Shown in pieces: positions 10,216-45,307 of a DNA stretch of 64,000 bases. Both the position numbers and the translations under genes were made by a program. The stretch comes from Rhodocollybia butyracea (lineage: Eukaryota > Basidiomycota > Agaricomycetes > Agaricales > Omphalotaceae). The stretch is taken from contig JADNRY010000248.1 in assembly GCA_015501585.1 (NCBI GenBank), forward strand, positions 1 to 64,000, in the 5' to 3' direction. Position 1 is the stretch's first letter. Every line of letters starts with the position of its first letter. Below the pieces are notes generated by a model. That model worked only from the letters and a program-made list of their open reading frames with translations, ran no database searches and was not told the DNA's origin.

Positions 10216-10423
10216 ACTAATGTGTGGTCAAAGTGTTGTATATCAACCTTGAAAAATCCAAGTCCTACCTTCCTACACCCTAGACAAACCTCACCATTAT
10301 GCCTCTCCCAACAGCTTATCGACGGCAGAGTTAAACATACCGCCAGGACTTCCATCTTCGTGAATTTCATTTCTTTATCCCCTCATTCCGAATTTGATCC
10401 CCTCAGAGTTCACCCATTGCAGG

Positions 10424-13400
10424 AGCATTATTTAAATACCCCCAGTATCTGTTGTGGAGATTATGATAATAAACCCAGTAAGCTACTGTACAGTAAGAGT
10501 GTAGGGGCATTTTAATCCCTCTGTGTTCGCATTTGATGAGGTCATGTGACTCGTTCGTTGCAGCTTTTGGGTGGCTGGACGAAAATAGGTTATTTATGGG
10601 CCTATTTAGGCAATTTCTGGGATGGTAGCTAGCCCAAAAAAGACTATATATAATGTATTAATATTTGAGCACTACTCCGAGGTGGATTAGGCACCATAAG
10701 GGGATGGATTCATCGAAAAAATCTAGATGACGTTCGGTCAAAGCTGGCTGAGCATTACCAAATTGGGTAATGCCATCAAAACAGTAAAAGCGGCCTAAAA
10801 AGCCTGCTTCTACATGGATATTCCGCCCTATAAGAGTGTAGATAGTATCTTTACATATATAATAGGTCCCTGAAGCGAAATTACAGCGATAGCTGCGGTC
10901 AAAGCTGTTTTATTACCATATTTAGAATGCCAGCAAAGCGGCCTAAAAGCTTGTTTATGCATGGGTATCCTACCTAATAGCAGTCTATACAGTGTTTATA
11001 GATGTACAGTAGGCACCTAAAGCGAAATTAAAGCAGGTATATGGTGTAATAGTAGCATTGCTTCGATGTTTGGGTCTGTGGCTGTGTTGTAAAAAATCGA
11101 AATAAAAGTAGGGATGTTTAATATACTAGTGGTACAGGCATGGTCTCTGCATATATATATATGCCTGAAGCAAAATCAGAGCATTCTATGAAGAGAATAG
11201 ACTGTAATTGCCTGCTCTAGGCCGGAGGAGGTCAAAGCTGTATGACCAAATAGGGAAATCTATGATTACATACAGGTGGTGTTGAGTCGAAGTTGGGCTC
11301 AGTAATGGCGTGGCCTCTCAAGGTCTGAGGTCTGGAATACATATCTGAGTGCTGTAGTATACTAGCTACGCCCTCCAGGTGTTATATTTGACAATATGTG
11401 GGCAGGAATATGTACATGGAGTGATCAATGGTGAGTAACCATCAAAATTCGCATTTTTGAGGAATTAAATACTAATAATGAGTGTCTAAGCGCAGGTAGG
11501 ACCTCAAACCTCGGTAGGTATACTCTCCAACATAGTATACACTCGATCCGTGTCCAAGAACCATTTATATGGCACCAGATGCGATGGTATACACTGATCT
11601 TTATTGATTTTCTGTCAAAACTCGATTTTTTGAGGAATTATCATGGAATATTGGGCCTTAAGAGTAGCCAGGGGGCTAAGACGTCGTATATAGACTGTAC
11701 TATATAGTATTAGTCTTTTCCATATGCAAGAACGATTTATGCAGCACCTGAAGCGATGGTATTCCCTGATCTGTATGGATTCTGCCAAAAAATGCGATTT
11801 TCAGGAAATAAAACAGGCATAGAGTGTGCTATACACCTCAGACTATGCTCAAACTTGGATAATCATGTATTCGAATCATATAGAGGCCCTCCAGACCAAA
11901 ATGTTTGAGTATGTACATCTCAATGTCACGATCTGAACTTTGAGCCAAGTAGAGATATCCTAGTGTGCACTTACAACAGTATCGTTCCATGGAGGTACCC
12001 AGATGTGGATATAACACCTGGTCGTCATTGAATTCGATTCGAAGACATTTTTCCCAAGTTTTTAGTATGATCTGAGACTTGTAGCACACTCTATGCCTAT
12101 TTTATTTCCTGAAAATCGCATTTTTTGGCAGAATCCATACAGATCAGGGAATACCATCGCTTCAGGTGCTGCATAAATCGTTCTTGCATATGGAAAAAGA
12201 CTAATACTATATAGTACAGTCTATATACGACGTCTTAGCCCCCTGGCTACTCTTAAGGCCCCAATATTCCATGATAATTCCTCAAAAAATCGAGTTTTGA
12301 CAGAAAATCAATAAAGATCAGTGTATACCATCGCATCTGGTGCCATATAAATGGTTCTTGGACATGGATCGAGTGTATACTATGTTGGAGAGTATACCTA
12401 CCGAGGTTTGAGGTCCTACCTGCGCTTAGACACTCATTATTAGTATTTAATTCCTCAAAAATGCGAATTTTGATGGTTACTCACCATTGATCACTCCATG
12501 TACATATTCCTGCCCACATATTGTCAAATATAACACCTGGAGGGCGTAGCTAGTATACTACAGCACTCAGATATGTATTCCAGACCTCAGACCTTGAGAG
12601 GCCACGCCATTACTGAGCCCAACTTCGACTCAACACCACCTGTATGTAATCATAGATTTCCCTATTTGGTCATACAGCTTTGACCTCCTCCGGCCTAGAG
12701 CAGGCAATTACAGTTTATTCTCTTCATAGAATGCTCTGATTTTGCTTCAGGCATATATATATTATGCAGAGACCATGCCTGTACCACTAGTATATTAAAC
12801 ATCCCTACTTTTATTTCGATTTTTTACAACACAGCCACAGACCCAAACATCGAAGCAATGCTACTATTACACCATATACCTGCTTTAATTTCGCTTTAGG
12901 TGCCTACTGTACATCTATAAACACTGTATAGACTGCTATTAGGTAGGATACCCATGCATAAACAAGCTTTTAGGCCGCTTTGCTGGCATTCTAAATATGG
13001 TAATAAAACAGCTTTGACCGCAGCTATCGCTGTAATTTCGCTTCAGGGACCTATTATATATGTAAAGATACTATCTACACTCTTATAGGGCGGAATATCC
13101 ATGTAGAAGCAGGCTTTTTAGGCCGCTTTTACTGTTTTGATGGCATTACCCAATTTGGTAATGCTCAGCCAGCTTTGACCGAACGTCATCTAGATTTTTC
13201 GATGAAATCCATCCCCTTATGGTGCCTAATCCACCTCGGAGTAGTGCTCAAATATTAATACATTATATATAGTCTTTTTTGGGCTAGCTACCATCCCAGA
13301 AATTGCCTAAATAGGCCCATAAATAACCTATTTTCGTCCAGCCACCCAAAAGCTGCAACGAACGAGTCACATGACCTCATCAAATGCGAACACAGAGGGA

Positions 13401-13492
13401 TTAAAATGCCCCTACACTCTTACTGTACAGTAGCTTACTGGGTTTATTATCATAATCTCCACAACAGATACTGGGGGTATTTAAATAATGCT
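10424..13492. repeat. 3.07-kb giant inverted repeat (fold-back element)
   Basis: The left arm, 10424-11831, is repeated as its reverse complement at 12082-13492, leaving a 250-nt unique centre. The arms differ by only a few indels, for example one extra T near 13207. The ends read AGCATTATTTAAATACCCC and its complement, including the palindrome ATTTAAAT. The central ORF, minus 11838-12089, has no recognisable family. The element lies inside sequence otherwise related to 22660-22960 (CCGAATTTGATYCCC to the left, TTTAGCTTA to the right), so it looks like an insertion. It could be a fold-back transposon or two tail-to-tail copies of one repeat. Confidence 0.85.
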
Positions 13493-13778
13493 ACTGAAGC
13501 GGCTGCAGAGTTGCCAAATTACTGTATGCTCCAGCACAGTTATTGTGAACAGACAAGGTGTGGGCATTATGGTCCCTGTTTTACGGTTTTGTTTAGCTTA
13601 CGAAACTTAAAGTCGCGGAGTCAGACTCAAAAAATATTGAACAACTAGTCTGCAGTGTCCAGGAACAAGTACTGTACTGAGCCAAAAAAAAAAACTTAGA
13701 AAATGTATAGCTAATATCAGTGATGATCACAGGTAAGAAAACCGTGTAATGGTATCTAGAACACATTAGCCCAATGAA

Positions 13779-15970: not shown

Positions 15971-16313
15971 CATCAGGAAAAGCCGTTTTTGCCTAGGTGA
16001 CCTATGAATCCTATGGCATCCTAGGAATTTGGGCTCGTCCCTTGCCAGTCAAGGCTCTTGAAGATTCCCTAGGGTATCCTAGGCAAACCTAGGGCAAGCC
16101 TAGGTTTGCCCAGGTTTGCCCAGGTGTTCCCCAGGTGTTCCCCAGGAGCACCTGGGCAAACCTGGGCAGACCTAGGCTTGCCTGGGGAATCCTCAAGAGC
16201 CTTGACTGGCAAGGGACGAGCCCAAATTCCTAGGATGCCATAGGATTCATAGGTCACCTAGTTTGCTTTAGGCCACTCTGGGGTCACCTAGGCAAAAATG
16301 GCTTTTCCTGATG
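15971..16313. mobile_element. MITE with TA target duplication
   Basis: The terminal inverted repeats start CATCAGGAAAAGCC and end GGCTTTTCCTGATG, with TA dinucleotides just outside (15969-15970 and 16314-16315). Almost the whole element folds back, including a long internal arm around CCTATGAATCCTATGG. The centre, near 16080-16190, is an array of CCTAGG and CCCAGGTGTTC words. There is no ORF. A TA TSD and this size point to a Tc1/mariner-type nonautonomous element. Confidence 0.75.
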
Positions 16314-23282: not shown

Positions 23283-23535
23283 TATAACGCGCCCTATGGG
23301 CAAAGTCCTTAAGAACACCGGTGAACACAACAAATAGGATACTATTGTGTGTACGACAGTGTAAAAGACTAACTAGACTCTTAAGTAATCGTACGATACT
23401 TATAGTAACGGATTTATTATATAATTAATAATAAATAGAATGATAAGATAGACCGTTTGGTCTATCGGCGGCGTCTAGGATGACCGTATCGCCGGATACG
23501 GTCAGTGGTGATTATGGAGAGGCGGAGGCGTTACA
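23283..23535 (-). mobile_element. solo LTR of the gag-only element family
   Basis: This 253-bp LTR, on the minus strand, starts TGTAACGCC and ends GCGCGTTATA; it is nearly identical to the LTRs at 35904-36156 and 38996-39249. Its own flanks do not match each other (GTGCC left, AACAG right). GTGCC is, however, the complement of the GGCAC flanking 35904. It contains a hairpin with stem TGACCGTATC/GATACGGTCA and another with GATAGACC/GGTCTATC. Confidence 0.9.
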
Positions 23536-30215: not shown

Positions 30216-30317
30216 AGTCCTGAAGAGGAATCGAACCCCTGTCTACATAATATAATTGCTTGATTCTCTACAAGAAATAACAACGTCATGTTGTGTTAAT
30301 CACTACACCATCAGGAC
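30216..30317 (-). tRNA. tRNA-like gene with probable intron, isotype unresolved
   Basis: On the minus strand, acceptor arms GTCCTGA and TCAGGAC pair perfectly. A box: TGGTGTAGTGATTA with D-stem GTGT/ACAC. B box: GGTTCGATTCC, perfect consensus, in a T-arm AGGGG/CCTCT with one G-U pair. At 102 nt it is about 30 nt too long, implying an intron in the anticodon loop. Stem CATGA/TTATG (or ACATG/TATGT) closes that loop. I could not place U33 and the anticodon, so it may be a pseudogene. Confidence 0.55.
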
Positions 30318-33550: not shown

Positions 33551-35903
33551 ATGGAGTATCGCATTGCAACCTGTAAACCAGACATGAAACCTTCCATCCA
33601 CGCCTTAATCGAAGTCAAAGCTGAATCTCTACATGATTCCGTTCCACCTCGAGTTTTCACGTTTGTTGGTCCAAAACCTCACAATTACCCGATGGTTCCT
33701 CCTGAAACTCAACCTCCAGATCCCGATTATCATGCCCTAGCTCTGCCTCGTTTTGATCTACCTGGTTGGTTCGTCTCTTCTCTGCCTTTCTTGGGGTTTG
33801 CACCTAGCTCCAATCCTTTTAAATGTCAATTTCTACAATGTCTTGATTACAACATTGACATGTTGCCCATTGAATTGCATCACGAAAGTGGCTGTTACAT
33901 TCTCAATCCATCTTTGAGAGACGACTGGGATTCCTTAGAACGGAATATGAGAGCTTTCCTTGGCGCATGCAGGCACGTTAATCCCCTAGGATTAACCCAT
34001 GATTTCCGGTTCTGGTTCTATCCTCAACAATTTGGATATTGCTTCGCTTGGGAGACAGAGAAACTGGCTCGATGGGCGGCGTCGAGATCTCGGCAAGCTT
34101 TCATTCTGCTGATAGCGGCCATATCCTTCTTTCTTAAAATGCTGTATCATATGGAAAAGAAGTGGGTTGCACTGTTTGAGAATTGTACAACTCAATTACC
34201 TGACCCAAATCCATTTTGGAGCGCGAGGCAGAATGAGTACGCCAAACTTTGTTGTGGACTGGTTCCTTCGAAATTCGAATGGCAGGAGTGTTTGCAAAAA
34301 GAGACATCCATTAGCTCGGAGTGGCTTTCTTACTTTTACCAAATCATGGAAATGCCAATGGCGGGGGTCTTCATGAACGTCAACGACCGCAGTTGCATTC
34401 CGCTGATTCCTGTGTTTCTTGAGGCTAATATGCCTTTGGTGCTGTGCTGGGGTACTCTAGAAACATGGTACAAATCAGAACTACCAAAAGCGTTGGCTCT
34501 GCTTATTTCTGCACCAAATTTGTCCAATGTTAAGTCTAACGTTGCTCCTTATGTCTTCCTGTCCGTCGTTATGGATGTCTCACGTGTCGCAAATCCTGGG
34601 CTATGCATTCCCCGAGTCACAGGTGGAACTCAACCACGTGCAAATGAAAACATTCATACATTCATCAAGCGTCAAGAGGAGCATAGGATAAAATCTATAG
34701 CCTCTGAGACTCCTGTCAACCGCCAGTCTTGACTACAACAAGAAGCAAATGCCCAGAAAGACCAACCTCCCGGCCGGAGAGGGCTTGTGTCTATTATTGG
34801 GATCTGGTTGAGGGAGTGAGAGTTCCGAACGGTGTGCTGCAGGCAGAGGAACTACAAAAGTATTTGGGAAAGATATGGACCTAACCGGCGACACTATGAT
34901 TCTGTGGCTGATGAATGGGAGGTGTCCACAGATCTAGATCCAAACGATAGTTATGAGCCAGGCTTTGATGATGAGGAAGATGACATCTTTTGTCCAACAG
35001 ACGATGTTCTCGATCATACTGCTGGGTGTACCTCATCCCAGTCTTATATTGACCGCCTTCATGGCCAGACACAAGTCCCGACAAGTGTCGTGCTGTTTTA
35101 CGATGCTGTTGATGACATTGCCTTCCATCGTTTCGGTTTCATCGCTCCTGCTCCTCTCCCCTCTGACCGTCCAGTGGTCCTTTCCACAAAGGTATGGGGG
35201 CAGATATTAGATATGCTTGGATCAGGGCATCCTCCAAAACCTCCAATTCATAACCCTGCCTCCGAACACCAGATGTGTACATTTTTCTTCGACTTACTAC
35301 GTGCGAAGGATATCTCTGAGGTACCACAATTCTGTGATCTGGTGAATACTAAATTCAGCCCTGTTCCCCCTTTCAAGATTGATTTCATATCCGGCTACTT
35401 CCTAATTCAAGCTCAAGAGGCATCAGATGATGAACCCTTCGTGCTTGGTATTCCAAATGCCTCTACTATTCTCGAAATTGCAAGGAGAAAATGGGGGCCT
35501 AAAACCATCGACATTATGAAAGGCTTGCTCAAGGAGGGAATCCCATTCAAAACCTTGGTACCTTACAGTCACCCTCAGAAATATATAGCACCTCCGGTGA
35601 GAAGAGTCAGCGCATTAGGCATTGGCCCTGCTGGATTTTCGCCCAGAATAGAAGACTACCACGCTTATGAACACTGCTGCAATGAATACCTTTGCTCAGC
35701 CAGAGGGCAAGCAGCGCTTCTGAGGGTGGCCTTATCGCTCGACTTGGCCGAGATATCGTCAATGAAAATGATGTTTTCGATGGACCGACAGAGAGTGCTC
35801 TCACAGGAAGCGAGAAAGTGTTTTGCTTATCGGAATCGACACAAAACCATGCGTTCTGGGATGACCAGCTTACTGAAGAAGAAATAGACCTCGTTTGCGG
35901 CAC
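33551..35903 (+). pseudogene. agaricomycete repeated-family gene, 5' part, truncated by LTR element
   Basis: Large protein of unknown function. The open frame 33551-34732 (393 codons; WYKSELPKALALLISAPNLS, RANENIHTFIKRQEEHR) ends at a TGA (34730-34732) where the family has an Arg codon. The frame continues LQQEANAQKDQPPGRRG, shifts twice around 34775 and 34840, and resumes as NYKSIWERYGPNRRHYDSVA, DEWEVSTDLDPND and so on to 35730. One more shift gives GGLIARLGRDIVNENDVFDG and AFWDDQLTEEEIDLVCG. There the LTR at 35904 c uts it. The missing C-terminus is at 23282-22921 on the other strand. No catalytic motif recognised. Confidence 0.75.
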
Positions 35904-36156
35904 TGTAACGCCTCCGCCTCTCCATAATCACCACTGACCGTATCCGGCGATACGGTCATCCTAGACGCCGCCGATAGACCAAACAGTCTATCTTATCATT
36001 CTATTTATTATTAATTATATAATAAATCCGTTACTATAAGTATCATACGATTACTTAAGAGTCTAGTTAGTCTTTTACACCGTCGTACACACAATAGTAT
36101 CCTATTTGTTGTGTTCACCGGTGTTCTTAAGGACTTTGCCCATAGGGCGCGTTATA
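35904..36156 (+). repeat. 5' LTR of the gag-only element
   Basis: Starts TGTAACGCC, ends GCGCGTTATA. It holds a 10-bp hairpin, TGACCGTATC (35935-35944) with GATACGGTCA (35949-35958). A second hairpin, at 35973-35992, is one base short of perfect because CG became CA; the 3' LTR and the solo LTR keep GATAGACC/GGTCTATC. Confidence 0.9.
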
Positions 36157-36180
36157 CTTTTTTGAACATCAAAAAATTAC

Positions 36181-38955
36181 TATTGTGTGAATAACACAAA
36201 GCTATTAGTTTAACAAGCTAAAAACAGTTATACTACCAAGTATAACAACCATTATTCCAACTCACCACACAATCTACACAAACCCGCTCCATTTTTCCGT
36301 CCCACTATATCATTTGCTGTCTCAATGACCTCTCGAAATCAATCAGAGAAGTCATATCGGAGCATGCGCGATCGCGCACCTTCCATTCGTGGTGACGTGT
36401 CACCACAATCAATCTATTCAGTCGCATCAGCGACTCATTCCGTGCGTGCGTCTGAAGGACGGCACTACAGGCAGGACAAAAGTCCACCTAATGAACAGTA
36501 TATGACTATTCGTACGACCCGAGAGGGTTTAAGTGAGATTTCTTCTGCGCTACGAGATGTAGCGGCATCACTCGACAAGAGTATGCAAGTACTCAATCGT
36601 ATTCTCAATATAACTGAGAAATGGGATGCATCTAGCATCCAATCTAATGAAGAAAGATCTTCTTCATCGAGAAACAGCAATAGAATCACTATTGCTGCAC
36701 CCACACCGAGACGGCCTGCCGTCACACCGCTGGTATTGCACAATGCAGCACCATCTGTTCCTACCGAGGCAAACAACTTGGTACGCCAATGGCGTGAGAC
36801 TGTGCCCAAGGCAGCGTCAGTCCAACAATCACTGTTGGACAAACAGTATTCACAAGGGATGACCAAGTCACCCCGTCATGTTCCTGTATTCCGACAGGAA
36901 TACGCACCAGTGTCAGTAACTATACCGACACCCATCTACACATCCCGCATGAGACAGAGTCCCAATGCGGAGGCAGCGTCTCTGACACTGCGAGGTCCCA
37001 GGCCATTACTGGTGACCAAATCTTGCTCACCACAAAGCGCGGTGAACATTAAAAGTGAACCAAAGTTACCTCGTAACTTCAATCAGGTAGTAGTGATACC
37101 ACCACAGGAAAGTACAATGTACTTCCCTACTGCAAGGGCGCCAATGGTACCCAATATTATTACACCTCCAGTAGTTGTACCAAACACTACTGGAAATCAT
37201 TCCAGTATGGGACCGCAACACGGTACCCTTCCGGTAGTTCCTACTACCATATCCATCGCCCCAGCGACACAAAGTGTTGCCCCTCCGGTAGTACACACTA
37301 CCGTAAGACTGCCCAAATTGCCGCCCAGCAATGCGCCAGAGCCAAGTTCAATGCCAGTACCAACGGTATTGGCTGAGTTGCAACCACAGCCGCTTCCGTT
37401 GGGAGTAGCTAAAGATTGGATGAGTCGCATAGCGATTCAACGCCAACATAACACCAGTCTCCGAGATTTCGGATTCGTGCCATCTGGGCTTCCCAACCAA
37501 ATGGTGGGATATAATGTCGACGGAATACCCGTTGATAAATTGACTACTCCCAGAGAAATCTGGGATCGATTTTACATTCCACCCGCTGAGTCCTTTCCAG
37601 GACCAAGCAATAATGCCGGAGCAAAAGCGCCTAGCAAAAAATCCCGTGAAGGGGGGAGGAAGCACAAGAGTGCTAAATCCAAAGGCCGCAAACGCAGGCC
37701 ATGGTCGGATGAATCATCTGACTCTAGTGATACCGAGTCAAATACTGACTCTTCATCTGATGCCTCTTGGCTAGACAAATTTGCTACCCGTAAGGGTAAA
37801 ATTACTCCTAATGAGCGCCGTAAAATACTGCGTTCACTTGCATCTAAGATGCGAGAAACAACAGGTGACGACGAATGTCGTTCCCGATGGAAACACAAGG
37901 TACACAAAGTGTACTGTAAACAAATTCGAGATAAGGTAGGGAATCCTATCCCTCCCATTGAGAGCCGTAAAGCTCTTAAAGTTCCATCTCCGGAGGTCTA
38001 TGACGGATCTCCGGATGTCGATGTCTTTGAGCGGTGGCTAATGTCACTTCTCCAATGGATGGTAGTCAACCGCATGTGCGGTGACGATTACGGTGCTACA
38101 CGGACTGCCGTGCTTGGTATGTTTCTAAAGGGCAAAGCCCTTGACTGGTATAACGACAAAGTCGCTGGTATACACCGCACTGTCCTTAAGTGGACATTTG
38201 AAGGTGCCATCATTGGTGTCTTTGATCGTTGCATCCAAGCAACGACCATTCATCAAGCTGCACGGCAGTTTGACCTTATTGAGTATTCACCCGATACGGG
38301 TGTGAGGGATTATTATTCCTCACTTACACGATGGGCATCATGGATGCTCCAAACACCGGATGATGCAACAATGCGGAAACGGTTCATTGAGGGATTACCC
38401 TTCAATATTATCAGGCAACTCACAAACGAGGGGATCGTTCCGGAGTATGCCAAATTAGAAGTGATGGTCAGAGCCGTCACACACAGTGAGGACCACATGG
38501 CCCTCACTAAATATTATGTCTCTTCTAGGAATAGAGACAATGAACTTAAATCATCAGAACACCCCGATGAGTCGGACACCGAGAACATTAAAAATGTTCT
38601 TGAGCAATCAGGAGGACACCTCCTTAAGTATCGGAAAGGATAAACCTTCCGAATGATTTACTGGTTATTCTGACGCCCAGGTAATATGCCTTACCTGGGC
38701 ATCACTACTTATCCTCAGCCCGGATTCTCACTGAGAATCCTCATTAAGCAATACTCGGAAAACTTCCGAGTCTGCGCGTTGAACATTCGGACATTTCCGG
38801 ATCAAAATCATGCTCTAGTGGTACGCCCCACTATTGTTTGATTCGGACAAGTCCGAAAATCTGATGCGCCGCATCAATTAATCCCGTACTTGATACGGGA
38901 TCATTCTATGTTAAACCAAATTAAAAATGGTTTGGATGGTGATGATGTCATTACC
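36181..38955 (+). repeat. interior saturated with short hairpins
   Basis: Short inverted repeats follow one another almost without gaps through the leader, gag and 3' region. Perfect stems of seven or more pairs with loops of ten nt or less include: 36390-36405, 36675-36697, 36820-36840, 36881-36900, 37063-37079, 37286-37303, 37548-37565, 38226-38245, 38485-38508, 38517-38539, 38582-38600, 38675-38700 (10 bp), 38722-38740, 38753-38771, 38842-38857 and 38881-38901. At least ten more have one G-U pair or mismatch, for example 37353-37373, 37431-37449 and 37837-37855. Five- and six-bp stems fill most gaps. Stems and loops are all different. Confidence 0.85.
36325..38643 (+). CDS. retrotransposon Gag-like protein
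   Basis: Intact 772-codon ORF. Residues 1-390 are Ser/Pro/Thr-rich and disordered. A basic patch (KKSREGGRKHKSAKSKGRKR) lies near residue 440, then an acidic Ser/Asp run. The C-terminal 200 residues carry the Gag core of Ty3-type elements: VYDGSPDVDVFERWL, GKALDWYNDKV, FDRCIQATTIHQAARQFD and MRKRFIEGLPFNIIRQL. No zinc knuckle, protease or polymerase follows. It should form a particle or bind RNA. Start chosen as the first ATG of the open frame; it follows a 168-nt leader after the LTR. The coding sequence is itself built of hairpins. Confidence 0.75.
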   Translation: MTSRNQSEKSYRSMRDRAPSIRGDVSPQSIYSVASATHSVRASEGRHYRQDKSPPNEQYMTIRTTREGLSEISSALRDVAASLDKSMQVLNRILNITEKWDASSIQSNEERSSSSRNSNRITIAAPTPRRPAVTPLVLHNAAPSVPTEANNLVRQWRETVPKAASVQQSLLDKQYSQGMTKSPRHVPVFRQEYAPVSVTIPTPIYTSRMRQSPNAEAASLTLRGPRPLLVTKSCSPQSAVNIKSEPKLPRNFNQVVVIPPQESTMYFPTARAPMVPNIITPPVVVPNTTGNHSSMGPQHGTLPVVPTTISIAPATQSVAPPVVHTTVRLPKLPPSNAPEPSSMPVPTVLAELQPQPLPLGVAKDWMSRIAIQRQHNTSLRDFGFVPSGLPNQMVGYNVDGIPVDKLTTPREIWDRFYIPPAESFPGPSNNAGAKAPSKKSREGGRKHKSAKSKGRKRRPWSDESSDSSDTESNTDSSSDASWLDKFATRKGKITPNERRKILRSLASKMRETTGDDECRSRWKHKVHKVYCKQIRDKVGNPIPPIESRKALKVPSPEVYDGSPDVDVFERWLMSLLQWMVVNRMCGDDYGATRTAVLGMFLKGKALDWYNDKVAGIHRTVLKWTFEGAIIGVFDRCIQATTIHQAARQFDLIEYSPDTGVRDYYSSLTRWASWMLQTPDDATMRKRFIEGLPFNIIRQLTNEGIVPEYAKLEVMVRAVTHSEDHMALTKYYVSSRNRDNELKSSEHPDESDTENIKNVLEQSGGHLLKYRKG

Positions 38956-38995
38956 ATTTTCGATTCACATCCCTGATGTTAATCTGGTGGGGAGG

Positions 38996-39249
38996 TGTAA
39001 CGCCTCCGCCTCTCCATAATCACCACTGACCGTATCCGGCGATACGGTCATCCTAGACGCCGCCGATAGACCAAACGGTCTATCTTATCATTCTATTTAT
39101 TATTAATTATATAATAAATCCGTTACTATAAGTATCGTACGATTACTTAAGAGTCTAGGTAGTCTTTTACACTGTCGTACACACAATAGTATCCTATTTG
39201 TCGTGTTCACCTGGTGTTCTTAAGGACTTGCCCATAGGGCGCGTTTATA
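38996..39249 (+). repeat. 3' LTR of the gag-only element
   Basis: Near-identical to 35904-36156. Of five substitutions seen between the pair, four are CpG to TpG or CpA; there are also three one-base indels. Confidence 0.9.
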
Positions 39250-40154: not shown

Positions 40155-40501
40155 TGTTGGTATTCGGTCCGCGGTATATGGCCGCCAGTATGTACAGCTC
40201 CAATACCAAGTAGATATCAGACCCAAGTTCTTATCATTTGTTTTAACTTTTATTTCATTGATACGGATTTCTACTTATACTGTATGTATCGACGTTCCCT
40301 TCTTTTCCTCAGCCTTCATCACTTCTGGCTGAGGTATGTCTATTATACTTATGCTCTATGTCCATTATGCTCATACTGTACCTATAGCTTAGTTGTACAT
40401 CGTACTAACGTGTCTCTTAGGTATGGTAATATGATTAAGCCTTCATCACTTCTGGCTGAGCTTAGTTGTACATCGTACTAACGTGTCTCTTAGTTCCAAC
40501 A
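40155..40501 (+). repeat. 5' copia LTR
   Basis: Contains hairpin CCTCAGC/GCTGAGG around 40309-40335, an intron-like insert (40334-40387; GTATGT to TATAG), then segment Q with the branch-site word TACTAAC and CTCTTAG. After a 19-nt linker, P and Q are repeated without the insert. Three of its four substitutions relative to the 3' LTR are CpG to CpA. Confidence 0.9.
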
Positions 40502-40518
40502 GGTTATGGGCCCCGAGT
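40502..40518 (+). other. candidate primer-binding site
   Basis: GGTTATGGGCCCCGAG directly follows the 5' LTR, the position of the tRNA primer site. It resembles the TGGTATCAGAG-like initiator-tRNA sites, but only in part. Confidence 0.45.
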
Positions 40519-40600
40519 CCGCCTGATACAGCCAGCCTTATAGTGATTACCGGAATCGAATCTTTTATCTTCTCTTCCTGCATAACCCTCGTCTCTATCG

Positions 40601-43600
40601 ATGTCTACTACCCCTTCCGCTCCTACTACCCAACCTACTCAGACTACTTCGAGTACACAGACCACTATGACCGCGCCGACTATTCCGAGTGATTGGACCA
40701 TCCCTAGTGGTGGAAATTCTCTTCCCTCGTGACACTAAGCTCAAAGGTGAAACAATTTTTGTCTTGGTCTGCCGTCTTCCTCGCTGGTGCTCGCACAGTA
40801 GGATGTCAGTCTATTTTGTCGGCACGCTTGTTTGTCCTCCGATACCGACACTAAGTATCTTATCTGGCAACGGATGGATTCTTATATGATGAACATGCTT
40901 CTCCAGTGTATCTCTGAGAGCATGGTCAGCATGGTAGAAGGTCTTACGAGCGCCGCCGCCTATAAACGACTTTCGGGTACTTATGGTCCTCAGGGTTCTG
41001 GTCTCATCATGACGTTCTTCTCCCGACTCACCCGCCGACTTCCGCTCCAGCATAGCTTTGATTCTTTGTCTGCCCATCTTCAGGGTTTCGAATCTGCTCT
41101 GCAGGATATCCGGAAAGCTGGGTACGTTGTGGAGGAAGGGTTTGCCTCTGCTATTCTTGTCACTACTCTCCCCAATGAGGAAGGTGCGACCGGGTCTTGG
41201 CACACCTGGATCCGCAGTTTCTCTCTCACCTCCAGCACTACTCTTGAGTCGACTGTCCAACAGATTTTAGGTTCTTACCGTTCAGCTCATCCTGACGAGA
41301 ACTCTAATTCCGGCATGTCGAACGTAGAAGCCGCCGTCGCTGTGCTCGAACGCTCCTATGCGGCCCGTGGAGATTATTATTGTGTCAACTGCCACACTCC
41401 CGGTCACACCAAGGATTTTTGCCGTAAGCCCGGTGGTGGGAAACATGCTATGGAGGCTAAGGGAGGTAACAGAAAGGGGAAAAATAAGAAGAAGGGCAAA
41501 GAGAAAGCCCACCATGTGGAGAGTGGGGGAGGAGGTGAAACTGAGCAGTCTACCTCATCACATTTCGTAGAATCTTCTTCGGGCGCCAATATTATCGATT
41601 TCTCTGCTTACCCGGTGACCGAGACTTCTACAAATGTGAATTCCTCCCAGCCTATGTCTGAGTCAGTGTATCCAGCTGGTACTACTGCCGATAGGCCTCC
41701 CATCATTATCGACTCTGGTACTACGTCTCACATTCATTCTGTTCGTGCCGACTTCACTCTTTCCACCATCCGGCCATTTCTCAGAAGGTTACTGGATTTG
41801 GTCATGGTACTATGAAGATTGCAGGTCGAGGTATAGCCGTTTTTCTTGCGCGTCGTCGCCATCGTCAACTTGTCCGTCTCAATCTGAAGGACACTGCTTT
41901 CGTTCCTGACTCCTCTCCTACCCTCATTTCCGTTTCCCGACTCGACGAAGCTAAGTGTTATACTGTCTTTGGCGCAGGGAAATGTGTAACATTCAGTAAG
42001 GATGATGCTGGTACTTTTATCCAGCGCCTTATTGATGAGGAGGATGTTGTTTTCACTGGAACGAAGGACGATTCTCGACTTTATCACCTTGACTCTGCTC
42101 CCTCCACCTCTGCGTTTACATCTTCCACCTCGGACAAACCTCCGCTTTACTCCAAACTGGTTCAGCTTCATAACGAGCTTGGGCATTTGAACTATCCCGC
42201 TTGTCGTGACTTGTACCGTTCGGGTACGCTTGAGGGGATGACCGTGAAACTTACGGCCTCAGAATTGGCTGCAGAACCCCCCATCTGTGACGCCTGTGCG
42301 CAGGGAAAGCTCACCCGTGCGCGCTTTCCTGAATCGAACTCTAGAGCTTCAGAGCCACTGGGCCTAGTTCACTCAGATCTTTGGGGACCAGCTCCGGTCT
42401 TGACCACGACCGGCATGGGGTATCTCATCACGTTTCTTGATGATTGCTCCCGTATGGCTTGGGGTTACTTGCTTCGCCGCAAGAGTGATGCTTTTACTGC
42501 TTTTAAGCAGTGGTTAGTTGAAGTAGAGAAGGTAACCGGCAAAAAGTTGAAGGTTTTCCGCACTGACAATGGTGGGGAATATATAACCAACGAGTGGCGC
42601 GATTGGATGAAGGAGCATGGTATCCGCTGGGAAAAGACCGCTCCTTACACTCCTGAACAGAACGGCCGTTCTGAGCGCCTCAATCGTACAATTTTTGACC
42701 GGGTACGCACTATCCTTATTCACTCTCAACTTCCTCTCTCTATGTGGGGCTACGCTGTCTGGTACATTCTTAATATCCGTGCCCGGACTTATGCTAGTCC
42801 TCTACCTAAAGGGGAGACACCCTATCATCTCTGGTACAAGAAGCACCCTGACCGTCGAAAATTGCATTCTTTTGGATGTAAAGTTTGGGTATACAACAAC
42901 TCCAGGAGCATAAACTTGACGCTCGTGGTACTCCTGGTATTTTTCTAGGTTTTGACGAGACTCGGGTGGCGTACTATGTGTACACGCCAGGTAAAGGTGT
43001 ACGTTCAGCAATCTCTGTGAAGTTTGATGACAACACTAATGGAGATGGACTTTTGAGCGCCGCGGGGGAGTCCTATGATTATTCGTCTCTCAAAAATCCT
43101 ACTTATAAAGATGACGATGAGTTTTCCCCTATAACCGCTCCATCCGCTCTCCCACCTGACCCTCCTGTTCCTGTTCCTCCTGCTACTCCTCCACCTCGTG
43201 CCCCTCGTCCTAATCCCCGCATGCCTTCTGATGCTACACCTGCTAAGACTCGCTCTCTGCGAGAGCAGAAGTCCAGCCACAGATTGATGAGGATATTCCT
43301 CCGCATGTTGAGCTTGATATGGATGATAGCGGGGATGAGGGGGAGATGCCCGAACTGGCTCATATCTTGAGTGGTGAAATTCCATTCAATGTTTCGCAGG
43401 CTCTCAACTCTCCCGATCATGCAGAGTGGGAAGCCGCTTGTCATTACGAGCTTAACCAGCTCTTGGAGACTGGGACTTACTCTCTCGTTCCACCACCTCC
43501 TGACCGTAAGGCCATTGGTACACGCTGGGCTTCGCGCTATCAAGCGCAATGCCGACACTCAGGCCATTGAGGTCTACCGAGCTCGACTTGTAGCTCAGGG

Positions 43601-44954
43601 TTTTACCCAAATTCCGGGTATTGACTTTGTCGATATCCACGCTCCGACTGCTCGTATTGAATCCATTCGTGGTATTGCAACCGTAGCGGCCATCCAGGAT
43701 TGGGAAATTCATGTCATTGATGTGAAATCTGCTTATCTTAATAGCACCATCCCTGATGACCAGCCAACGTATGTGAAGCAACCCCCGGATTTGCAGTCAG
43801 AGGAAAGGATTCGTGGGTTTGGAAGCTTAACAAGGCACTCTATGGACTTAAGCAGTCTGGTTTTCTCTGGTATGAGAAACTAAAAAGTGTTTTGGTTGAA
43901 CTTGGCTTTCAGGTTTGCATTTCCGATCCTTGTGTCTTCTTTCGTCGTTCTTCCGATGGAATAATCATCATTGCAACTCACGTCGATGATCTAGCTCTCT
44001 TTGGTTCCTCCATTCTACAGATTATTCAATTCAAGGATGAGTTCCGTACTCATTTTGATATCTCGGATAAGGGGGAGATCTCTCAATTTTTGGGTATGAC
44101 TGTTACTCGTGATAGATCTGCTCGAACCATTTCCTTTTCCCAACGTTCCTACATCTTGTCTCTCATTTCGCGTTTCCGACTCGATGATGCTCACCCCTTG
44201 GAACACCCATGGAAAAGACGGTATTGTCCAAAGCTGATTGTCCTTCTGATGATTCTCCTGAACAGAGAGAGATGCGCTTGGTGCCCTACGCTGAAGGTGT
44301 TGGTTCTCTCATGCACGCCTCCACTCGAAGCGCCCGGACATCACTCGCAGCACCCAACAAGTAGCGCAGTTCATGCATAATCCCGGTCATATCCACTGGA
44401 AAGCAGTGAAACGGATTATTCGCTATTTGAAGGGGACTGTTGACTTCGTCCTCGTCCTTGGTGGCAAGTCACTCCTTTTCTTTGCCTATACCGACTCCAA
44501 CTTTGTTGATCACCTTGAACATGGTCGTTCGGTGTCTGGCGCCGCCCTCACTTTCGGTACAGGTTGTTTTTCCTGGTATACGAGGAAACAGACTGCTGTT
44601 GCGACTTCCACCAGTGAAGCCGAATATTATGCAGCTGGATCTTGTGGTAGGGAAGTTGTTTGGTTCCGCTCCCTTCTCCAGGAACTCGACTTCACTCAAC
44701 CTGAACCAACTCAGATGTTTGTTGATTCATCTTCGGCTTTGAAGAACATTAATTCCGACCAAGTCACTAATGCAAACAAACATATCAAAATTCACCACCA
44801 CTGGATTCGTGAAGCGGTTCATTGCGGTGATATTCAGACAGCTGTTGTTGCTTCTAGGGATAATGTCGCCGACATATTCACCAAAGCTCTTGATGGTGAA
44901 ACTCATCGACAGGCAACTCGACTACTGGGACTTGTCCCAATGCATTCTCGTTGA
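40601..44954 (+). pseudogene. copia gag-pol polyprotein, multiple frameshifts
   Basis: ATG at 40601 starts a Ser/Thr-rich Gag. After a break near 40732 it resumes as WQRMDSYMMNMLLQCI and ends in a CCHC knuckle (CVNCHTPGHTKDFC, near 41385). Protease: IIIDSGTTSHIHS (41710). Integrase: HNELGHLNYPACRDL, HSDLWGP, FRTDNGGEY, PEQNGRSERLNR (the D, D and E are present). Reverse transcriptase: WEIHVIDVKSAYLNS and THVDDLALFG. RNase H: DHLEHGRSVSGAALTFGTGC, STSEAEYYAAG, NVADIFTKAL. Breaks lie near 40732, 41780, 42905, 43270, 43545, 43830, 44210 and 44330. All catalytic motifs survive, so damage is mostly small indels. Confidence 0.9.
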
Positions 44955-44961
44955 GGGGGAG
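44953..44961 (+). other. polypurine tract
   Basis: GAGGGGGAG immediately precedes the 3' LTR, overlapping the end of the pol frame's stop; it is the plus-strand primer position. Confidence 0.8.
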
Positions 44962-45307
44962 TGTTGGATATTCGGTCCGCGGTATATGGCCGCCGGTATG
45001 TACAGCTCCAATACCGAGTAGATATCAGACCCGAGTTCTTATCATTTGTTTTAACTTTTATTTCACTGATACGGATTTCTACTTATACTGTAGTATCGAC
45101 GTTCCCTTCTTTTCCTCAGCCTTCATCACTTCTGGCTGAGGTATGTCTATTATACTTATGCTCTATGTCCATTATGCTCATACTGTACCTATAGCTTAGT
45201 TGTACATCGTACTAACGTGTCTCTTAGGTATGGTAATATGATTAGCCTTCATCACTTCTGGCTGAGCTTAGTTGTACATCGTACTAACGTGTCTCTTAGT
45301 TCCAACA
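44962..45307 (+). repeat. 3' copia LTR
   Basis: Same P-insert-Q-linker-P-Q layout as the 5' LTR. Keeps three CpG sites that are CpA in the 5' copy. Confidence 0.92.

What the first reader, a model, noticed from the sequence alone, without database searches (positions are those of the whole stretch)
36181..38955. Retroelement interior built almost entirely of short hairpins
From the leader through the 772-codon gag and the 3' region, short inverted repeats follow each other almost without gap. I count about 18 perfect stems of 7-10 bp with loops of 10 nt or less, at least ten more with one wobble, mismatch or bulge, and many 5-6 bp stems. By rough arithmetic a random 2.8-kb sequence should hold one or two perfect 7-bp stems with such loops. 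Stem and loop sequences all differ, so this is not one amplified repeat. The hairpins run through codons, so the protein has evolved under a nucleotide-level rule. Possible roles: RNA packaging, hiding from or feeding RNA silencing, template-switch-driven growth during reverse transcription. I know of no described LTR element like this.
Basis: partly seen in the sequence, partly recalled or inferred. Interest (0 to 1): 0.92.

Follow-up and report, generated by a model that had tools for sequence, protein, structure and literature searches.

The report
Hairpin-dense fungal Ty3 retrotransposon lineage
A family of jumping genes, probably from a mushroom-type fungus, carries dense short hairpins throughout its sequence, protein-coding parts included, and seems to preserve many of them during evolution, for a purpose that is not yet known.

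Summary
36181-38955 holds 20 perfect stems of 7 bp or more (loops 3-12) vs 1.3 in dinucleotide shuffles (max 5 of 200); the Gag frame alone 15 vs 1.5 in synonymous shuffles (max 6 of 200). The window element is a gag-only LTR element with many copies in this 95.6-Mb genome; 27 aligned copies hold 17-25 such stems each. A related, apparently autonomous Ty3-type family is as dense through gag-pro (27 vs 2.3) and pol (30 vs 2.9); a third family also shows it. Pol pieces of four other Ty3 elements and a copia frame show no or slight excess: folding excess 32-45% vs -6 to 10% in controls. In pol, fourfold sites diverge 34% in stems, 55% elsewhere, 72% in loops, and doubly changed pairs stay complementary more often than controls; gag gives weaker or no support. 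G-U is not preferred over A-C, so both strands seem to matter. Best reading: selected local self-pairing of both strands, perhaps limiting duplex formation. Function is not shown.

The parts
35904..36156 (+). 5' LTR (TGTAAC...GTTATA), itself holding hairpins of 10, 7 and 9 bp
   Evidence: Matches 38996-39245 (97%) and a solo LTR at 23283-23535 (98.8%); ends fixed by target duplications of other copies; stems of 6 bp or more: 5 vs 0.6 in shuffles
36157..36324 (+). Leader, starting with an 8-bp hairpin TTTTTTGA..TCAAAAAA where the primer-binding site would lie; further stems at 36183 and 36227
   Evidence: Stem list; stems of 7 bp or more: 2 vs 0.1; the F2 relative has TTTTTGAGCATCAAAAA in the same place
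36325..38643 (+). Gag frame, 772 codons: capsid-type Gag ending before the zinc-knuckle and protease motifs of its relative P0001; carries 15 stems of 7 bp or more
   Evidence: 47% identical to P0001 over 535 residues; no Pfam match at E 0.001; hairpin statistics
38226..38245 (+). 7-bp hairpin fully paired in the F2 family too, with two changed base pairs (Arg codon CGT vs AGA, with ACG vs TCT on the other arm)
   Evidence: TCGTTGCATCCAAGCAACGA vs TAGATGCGTACAAGCATCTA
37188..37207 (+). 8-bp hairpin with an A-T to G-C double change in 8 of 44 other copies
38644..38995 (+). 3' untranslated region, dense in hairpins (8 stems of 6 bp or more in 352 nt), ending in a purine tract (ggtggggagg)
38996..39249 (+). 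3' LTR
   Evidence: the window copy's flanks show no matching target duplication, unlike 25 of 27 other two-LTR copies

Best explanation
The window element is a gag-only, non-autonomous member of a Ty3-type retrotransposon lineage, probably in an agaric-type fungus. The lineage, including a pol-bearing relative, is kept dense with short local hairpins (5-10 bp stems, loops mostly 3-6 nt). SHOWN BY COMPUTATION: the excess over synonymous shuffles in gag and pol; its presence in three families and near-absence from other elements tested; lower fourfold-site divergence in pol stems than in loops or elsewhere; excess of compensatory double changes in the F2-F3 comparisons; no preference for G-U over A-C. 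INFERRED: natural selection keeps most stretches of the sequence, and of its complement, folded on themselves. MOST LIKELY USE (inferred, not shown): self-folded strands anneal poorly with a complementary strand (antisense transcript or cDNA), so the element yields less long double-stranded RNA for the host's Argonaute/Dicer machinery, while stems of 10 bp or less stay too short to be good dsRNA substrates themselves (the length need of such proteins is recalled). It works like the genome-scale ordered RNA structure of some RNA viruses and like replicable RNAs that avoid double strands, but stronger.
For: Excess over synonymous shuffles, stems of 7 bp or more: F1 gag 15 vs 1.5, F2 gag-pro 27 vs 2.3, F2 pol 30 vs 2.9; over dinucleotide shuffles: F3 gag loci 17 vs 1.9 and 17 vs 2.0, F3 pol locus 28 vs 1.9. 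Folding excess 32-45% in five sets vs -6 to 10% in six controls. F2-F3 pol fourfold divergence: stem 24 of 70, loop 23 of 32, other 112 of 204 (stem vs other p=0.0035; stem vs loop p=0.0006); stems taken from F3: 30 of 80, 17 of 22, 102 of 188. Both-changed pairs still complementary: pol 16 of 26 vs 361 of 998 isolated pairs (p=0.012), gag F2-F3 19 of 35 vs 460 of 1280 (p=0.032). Strand symmetry: F1 span-40 z -16.8 sense and -16.7 antisense; one-mismatch stems A-C 26, G-U 13 of 62; single-sided changes in pol stems G-U 22, A-C 28 of 79. Fewer unpaired G+C on both strands in all three sets tested, e.g. F2 gag sense 0.273 vs 0.374, antisense 0.238 vs 0.313, the feature that PMC6913131 (abstract seen) associates with less dsRNA. 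No perfect stem over 10 bp among 454 of 5 bp or more, against about 11 expected from a geometric tail. The host genome has Piwi and Dicer_dimer domains.
Against: Nothing here shows antisense transcripts, siRNAs or any phenotype. The F2-F1 compensatory test is not significant (16 of 36 vs 391 of 1173, p=0.21), and the F4-to-F2 direction gave 8 of 28, below one third. Fourfold sites in gag show no stem constraint: F2-F3 19 of 34 vs 84 of 139; F2-F1 15 of 21 vs 68 of 108. Within the F1 family, linked double changes in stems are complementary in both states in 5 of 39 cases, elsewhere in 107 of 1010. The strands are not fully equal: the sense strand gains more relative to shuffles in all five sets (energy ratio 1.54-1.72 vs 1.45-1.62; z e.g. 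F2 pol -26.6 vs -21.7, F4 -18.9 vs -12.0; F1 without the 40-nt limit -15.5 vs -12.6), which leans to RNA. The F2 LTR has one stem of 6 bp or more (9 bp) against 0.4 in shuffles, so it is hardly enriched. Lower unpaired G+C is partly a restatement of the excess pairing. The sharp fall above 9 bp could mean saturating benefit, not avoidance. Three of the six controls show a slight folding excess (L063 7.3%, L064 9.6%, copia frame 10.0%; z -2.6, -4.1, -3.0). Hairpins were not tested outside this genome.
Confidence: 0.4

Rival explanations
1. Sense-RNA structure for the particle: the hairpins compact or protect the genomic RNA, or are many weak packaging sites for Gag; the parasite element keeps them so that its RNA is packaged.
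For: In F1 the leader, gag, 3' region and LTR are all enriched, and the gag-only element and its pol-bearing relative share the trait. Relative folding gain is larger on the sense strand in all five sets. Loops are A-rich and G/C-poor.
Against: Selection on a sense RNA should tolerate G-U far more than A-C. Observed: one-mismatch stems A-C 26 vs G-U 13 of 62; single-sided changes G-U 22 vs A-C 28 (pol), 16 vs 15 and 6 vs 16 (gag). G-U pairs in the F1 gag fold are below shuffles on both strands (49 vs 64, 72 vs 101). A-rich loops follow in part from an A-rich sequence with complementary stems.
Confidence: 0.27
2. Mutational origin: the lineage's reverse transcriptase folds the nascent strand back and copies it, turning imperfect inverted repeats into perfect ones; hairpins accumulate without use, limited only by protein constraint.
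For: Near strand symmetry and many perfect stems; trait shared by elements with related enzymes; in F1, density is lowest in the conserved capsid part (8.9 stems of 6 bp or more per kb vs 16.6 in the N-terminal part and 22.7 in the 3' region); clustered multi-base differences exist between F1 copies, and at some of the 17 places viewed one allele has a longer local stem.
Against: Density is higher in the pol frame (56 stems of 6 bp or more in 3.46 kb) than in gag-pro (51 in 3.98 kb). Unbiased arm-to-arm copying should not lower divergence (my reasoning), yet pol stems diverge less than loops or other sites. 10 of 13 compensated F2-F3 pol stems have a single changed pair. At other places viewed the alternative allele has a shorter local stem. 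Hairpin codons are not clearly less conserved to P0001 than others.
Confidence: 0.15
3. Single-stranded DNA function: the minus-strand cDNA, bare after RNase H, must fold locally for strand transfer, protection or integration, so the DNA strand is what is selected.
For: A-C mismatches (G-T in the minus strand) are about as common as G-U or commoner.
Against: The A-C excess over G-U is small relative to expectation (26 vs 13, expected 2.4 vs 1.7). Pol pieces of four other Ty3 elements in the same genome lack the hairpins.
Confidence: 0.12
4. Chance, composition or repeat artefact.
For: None found beyond the fact that short two-arm repeats occur by chance.
Against: Synonymous and dinucleotide shuffles, in-genome controls and three families.
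Confidence: 0.01

Closest known systems
[quoted passage not shown]
   Different: Here it is an LTR retrotransposon lineage. The excess is 32-45% against genome means of about 15% in SARS-CoV-2, 7.5-10.7% in HCV and at most 23.4% in the vertebrate RNA viruses quoted there (local peaks above 50% occur); shuffling method and fragment size differ. Some pairs are conserved with compensation. G-U is not preferred.
Replicable RNAs of Qbeta replicase that avoid double strands ('fewer unpaired GC' rule)
   Same: Strong self-pairing with few unpaired G and C, here predicted on both complementary strands (abstract of PMC6913131)
   Different: No RNA-to-RNA replication is known in this lineage; the complementary strand would be antisense RNA or cDNA
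Ty3/gypsy LTR retrotransposons
   Same: The F2 relative has RT, RNase H and integrase in Ty3 order and a Tf2-1-like SH3 domain; its Gag homologue P0001 has zinc-knuckle and protease matches below the curated cut-offs
   Different: Pol pieces of four other Ty3 elements of the same genome lack the hairpins; LTR ends in TA instead of CA
Non-autonomous LTR elements with Gag only
   Same: Two LTRs, purine tract, 5-bp duplications, one Gag frame, no pol frame seen
   Different: Hairpin density; such elements are named here from recall

Membership tests
Ty3/gypsy retrotransposon (lineage of the pol-bearing relative F2) | Pol order RT - RNase H - integrase | tested here: met
   L057:516-3974: RVT_1 163-323, RT_RNaseH 415-517, Integrase_H2C2 714-768, rve 784-882, SH3_Tf2-1 1001-1066
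Ty3/gypsy retrotransposon (lineage of the pol-bearing relative F2) | Gag with CCHC zinc knuckle followed by aspartyl protease | tested here: inconclusive
   Scanned in P0001, 87% identical to the F2 copy, not in F2 itself: zf-CCHC 17.6 bits (cut-off 20.8), RVP_2 14.8 bits (cut-off 20.3); DSG and CCHC motifs visible
Ty3/gypsy retrotransposon (window element itself) | Own pol gene | tested here: not met
   The 772-codon Gag frame is the only frame of 150 codons or more between the LTRs; therefore filed as a non-autonomous relative
LTR retrotransposon | Two LTRs with short target duplication | tested here: met
   25 of 27 two-LTR copies with both ends in view have identical 5-bp flanks; the window copy itself does not
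LTR retrotransposon | LTRs TG...CA | tested here: not met
   TGTAAC...GTTATA; the rule is from recall
LTR retrotransposon | tRNA primer-binding site after the 5' LTR | tested here: inconclusive
   The LTR is followed by CTTTTTTGAACATCAAAAAA, a hairpin, with no TGG start; no primer was searched for
GORS | Folding energy well above composition-matched shuffles along the genome | tested here: met
   the F2 LTR alone is hardly enriched
GORS | Genome of a positive-strand RNA virus | tested here: not met
   LTR retrotransposon; so it works like GORS but is not filed as a viral GORS genome
GORS | Folding present in the real RNA | not testable with these tools
   Needs chemical probing
dsRNA-avoidance structure | Less duplex with a complementary strand | not testable with these tools
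   Only the predicted drop in unpaired G+C on both strands was seen

The most novel reading that the evidence does not exclude
A retrotransposon lineage has evolved a both-strand hairpin code overlaid on its genes and controls: protein sequence, codon choice and non-coding DNA are jointly constrained so that either strand folds on itself every few tens of nucleotides. This shields element RNA and cDNA from duplex formation and RNA silencing, and even its gag-only parasite carries it. If so, it is a new anti-silencing strategy written in nucleotide structure with no suppressor protein.
Probability: 0.3. Interest if true: 0.95.

Novelty: new variant of a known kind. Interest (0 to 1): 0.85.

Why it matters
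Pervasive structure in coding RNA is known from RNA viruses, where its use is unsettled (recalled; the passages of PMC7642675 seen propose shielding from recognition). Here it is about 1.4 to 1.9 times the highest vertebrate-virus genome value quoted in that paper (methods differ), in a DNA-resident element whose copies preserve many versions side by side, together with a gag-only parasite and hairpin-poor Ty3 relatives in the same genome as natural controls. That makes the question of what selects genome-wide folding (silencing, packaging, or the polymerase itself) testable by comparison and by simple reporters.

Tried and rejected
Sequence-family route: Pfam gave nothing for the window Gag at E 0.001 (only weak, unrelated names at E up to 0.5). 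Rfam found only a tRNA in the window. Viral contigs (two scans) and genome contigs (one scan) held no relative. Protein search gave P0001 and three weaker relatives, recorded under Lentinula raphanica, Gymnopus androsaceus and Pleurotus ostreatus. No DNA for P0001 or the other three was at hand, so the hairpins were not tested outside this genome.

Within-family test: F1 copies are mostly 92-98% identical to the window copy, too close for a strong covariation test. Four pairs co-vary (36363/36380, 37010/37032, 37195/37200, 37734/37752), but the overall count is not enriched (5 of 39 vs 107 of 1010). One search used 27 of the 29 copies then in hand; L022 and L034, whose interiors are interrupted, were dropped. 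Its stem vs non-stem difference rates (0.0128, loop 0.0147, other 0.0312) are biased, because stems were chosen in the window copy; (44 copies; shared non-CpG changes per site: stem 0.034, loop 0.070, other 0.066) is less so but still chosen on that copy. I give neither weight.

Rejected as trivial: A-rich loops (expected in part when an A-rich sequence has complementary stems). The count of F3 pairs kept from F2 (235 of 324 vs 173 in shuffles) is not used as evidence of selection, since shared descent alone raises it. Axis phase of stems relative to codons: 8, 5 and 2 of 15 stems of 7 bp or more; not interpreted. The further F2 loci L058-L061 are about 99% identical to the F2 copy used, so no test was made among them.
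Full report
WHAT IS THERE. The window holds an LTR element at 35904-39249: 5' LTR 35904-36156, leader, one 772-codon frame at 36325-38643, a 352-nt 3' region ending in a purine tract, and 3' LTR 38996-39249. LTR ends (TGTAAC...GTTATA) and 5-bp target duplications are read from other copies: 25 of 27 two-LTR copies with both ends in view have identical 5-bp flanks. The window copy has none, and its LTRs are 97.2% identical, so it is probably not a fresh insertion. Most copies align only to residue 761 of its 772, so its last 11 residues differ from theirs. The protein has no Pfam match at E 0.001 but is 47% identical over 535 residues to P0001, a 1326-residue Gag with zinc-knuckle and protease motifs (both Pfam matches below cut-off). 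The window Gag stops before those parts. Weaker Gag relatives are recorded under Lentinula raphanica, Gymnopus androsaceus and Pleurotus ostreatus, so the host is probably an agaric-type fungus (inference). The genome holding the window has 95.6 Mb; the Gag search returned 64 matches, a lower bound. Call this family F1.

THE OBSERVATION. Perfect stems of 7 bp or more with loops of 3-12 nt in 36181-38955 number 20, against 1.27 +/- 1.13 in 200 dinucleotide shuffles (max 5). In the frame there are 15 against 1.50 +/- 1.09 in 200 synonymous-codon shuffles (max 6). Windows of 2775 nt that do not touch the element hold 0-7. With pairs limited to 40 nt, the frame folds at -708.6 kcal/mol against -423.6 +/- 17.0 in 60 synonymous shuffles (z -16.8). 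The 28 aligned interiors (window plus 27 of the 29 copies then in hand; two interrupted ones dropped) hold 17-25 such stems each. Coverage is high but not gapless: non-overlapping perfect hairpins of 5 bp or more cover 30-46% of the sets examined, with median gaps of 14-28 nt.

NOT ONE ELEMENT BUT A LINEAGE. P0001 matches a family in the same genome (F2; C1230 and others). F2 has LTR ends and leader start like F1 (TGTAACGCCTCC...GGCGTTATA, then CTTTTTTGAGCATCAAAAA) and a 1152-codon pol with RT, RNase H, integrase and a Tf2-1-like SH3 domain. It is therefore the likely autonomous partner or a close relative of it (inference; its 3' end was not seen). F2 gag-pro has 27 stems of 7 bp or more against 2.3 (max 6 of 100 synonymous shuffles). 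F2 pol has 30 against 2.9 (max 7 of 100). A third family, F3 (loci at C526 and C507, the latter also called F4; 93-97% alike), 47-55% identical to P0001 in Gag, has 17 against 1.9 and 17 against 2.0 in its gag loci and 28 against 1.9 in its pol locus (dinucleotide shuffles). Excess folding energy in 240-nt pieces is 39.2% (F1 gag), 43.0% (F2 gag), 44.7% (F2 pol), 31.8% (F3 gag part) and 40.4% (F3 pol, dinucleotide shuffles). Six controls give 2.4, 7.3, 9.6 and -0.2% (2-3-kb pol pieces of other Ty3 elements of this genome, 30-36% identical to F2 pol), 10.0% (neighbouring copia frame) and -6.2% (upstream frame); three of the six have z between -2.6 and -4.1, a slight excess. Stems of 7 bp or more in the four Ty3 controls number 2, 2, 5 and 0 against 1.4, 1.6, 2.2 and 0.8, within the shuffles.

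SELECTION OR MUTATION. F2 and F3 pol are 79% identical in protein over the main match and 73.6% in aligned DNA; the F3 copy has stops and so is decayed. Taking stems of 6 bp or more from F2 alone, fourfold sites differ at 24 of 70 in stems, 23 of 32 in loops and 112 of 204 elsewhere (stem vs other p=0.0035, stem vs loop p=0.0006). Taking stems from F3 gives 30 of 80, 17 of 22 and 102 of 188. Pairs changed on both sides stay complementary in 16 of 26 (isolated complementary pairs: 361 of 998, p=0.012), and in gag F2-F3 in 19 of 35 (460 of 1280, p=0.032). In gag F2-F1 the figure is 16 of 36 (391 of 1173, p=0.21, not significant). With stems taken from F3 pol it is 11 of 21. One F1 stem, 38226-38245, is fully paired in F2 although two pairs differ, with an Arg codon CGT in one and AGA in the other. 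In an alignment of the two LTRs (137 identities in 262 columns) a 10-bp and a 9-bp hairpin with 4-nt loops sit in the same place with mostly different stem sequences; the F2 LTR as a whole is hardly enriched (one stem of 6 bp or more vs 0.4). Against: fourfold sites in gag show no stem constraint (19 of 34 vs 84 of 139; 15 of 21 vs 68 of 108), the F4-to-F2 comparison gives 8 of 28, and the within-F1 test is flat (5 of 39 vs 107 of 1010). Together this favours maintenance by selection with turnover, seen clearly only in pol. Templated growth by reverse transcriptase is less likely as the maintaining force: pol stems diverge less than their surroundings, pol is denser than gag-pro, and 10 of 13 compensated pol stems have one changed pair.

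WHICH STRAND. A sense-RNA fold would tolerate G-U far more than A-C (general knowledge). Among 62 stems with one mismatch in four coding sets, A-C makes 26 and G-U 13 (expected 2.4 and 1.7). Single-sided changes give G-U 22 and A-C 28 of 79 in pol, 16 and 15 of 93 in gag F2-F3, and 6 and 16 of 49 in gag F2-F1. For F1, sense and antisense z-scores are alike with the 40-nt limit (-16.8 and -16.7) but not without it (-15.5 and -12.6); the relative gain is larger on the sense strand in all five sets (ratios 1.54-1.72 vs 1.45-1.62). So pairing seems wanted on both strands, or in DNA, with some lean to the sense strand.

HOW IT MOST LIKELY WORKS. Of functions that need both complementary strands folded, avoidance of duplex formation is the simplest. 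Replicable RNAs evolving with Qbeta replicase showed less dsRNA formation together with fewer unpaired G and C (abstract of PMC6913131). Here unpaired G+C is lower than in synonymous shuffles on both strands in all three sets tested (F1 gag 0.281 vs 0.359 and 0.256 vs 0.313; F2 gag 0.273 vs 0.374 and 0.238 vs 0.313; F2 pol 0.287 vs 0.363 and 0.252 vs 0.313), which is partly a restatement of the excess pairing. No perfect stem exceeds 10 bp in the 454 counted, where a geometric tail predicts about 11; a plateau of benefit would also do this. The host has Piwi and Dicer_dimer domains. The link to silencing is inference; packaging, cDNA folding and a mutational origin remain open.

COMPARED WITH THE KNOWN. 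The nearest known thing is genome-scale ordered RNA structure. PMC7642675 (passages seen) gives about 15% for SARS-CoV-2, 7.5-10.7% for HCV and 23.4% as the highest in vertebrate RNA viruses (genome means; a local peak above 50% is mentioned), and describes stem-loops similarly placed but with non-homologous pairs. Those values use another shuffling method and 350-nt pieces, so the comparison is rough. Literature searches for a retrotransposon of this kind (listings only seen) listed nothing that fits; only open-licence papers are held there.

Noticed in passing
window 10420-13496: A 3.1-kb stretch matches its own reverse complement at 95.7%, a large near-palindrome; a weaker one (79%) lies at 15993-16261.
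   Followed up: no
window 40155-45307: A copia-type element: 348-bp repeats at 40155-40501 and 44962-45307 (98%), with separate frames bearing integrase and reverse transcriptase domains between them. Used only as a control.
   Followed up: partly
window 23283-23535: A solo LTR of the hairpin family on the minus strand, 98.8% like the 5' LTR.
   Followed up: partly
window 36157-36176: Where a tRNA primer site is expected there is a hairpin CTTTTTTGAACATCAAAAAA, nearly the same in the F2 relative; possibly self-priming, untested.
   Followed up: no
window 33551-35887: Two long frames (393 and 351 codons) just upstream of the element, without Pfam match and without hairpin excess.
   Followed up: no
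L057:1-515 (minus strand): Downstream of F2 pol the sequence goes on with hairpins; no LTR start was seen within 515 nt, so the 3' end of F2 was not reached.
   Followed up: no
window 30216-30317: A tRNA gene on the minus strand by Rfam (42.8 bits).
   Followed up: no
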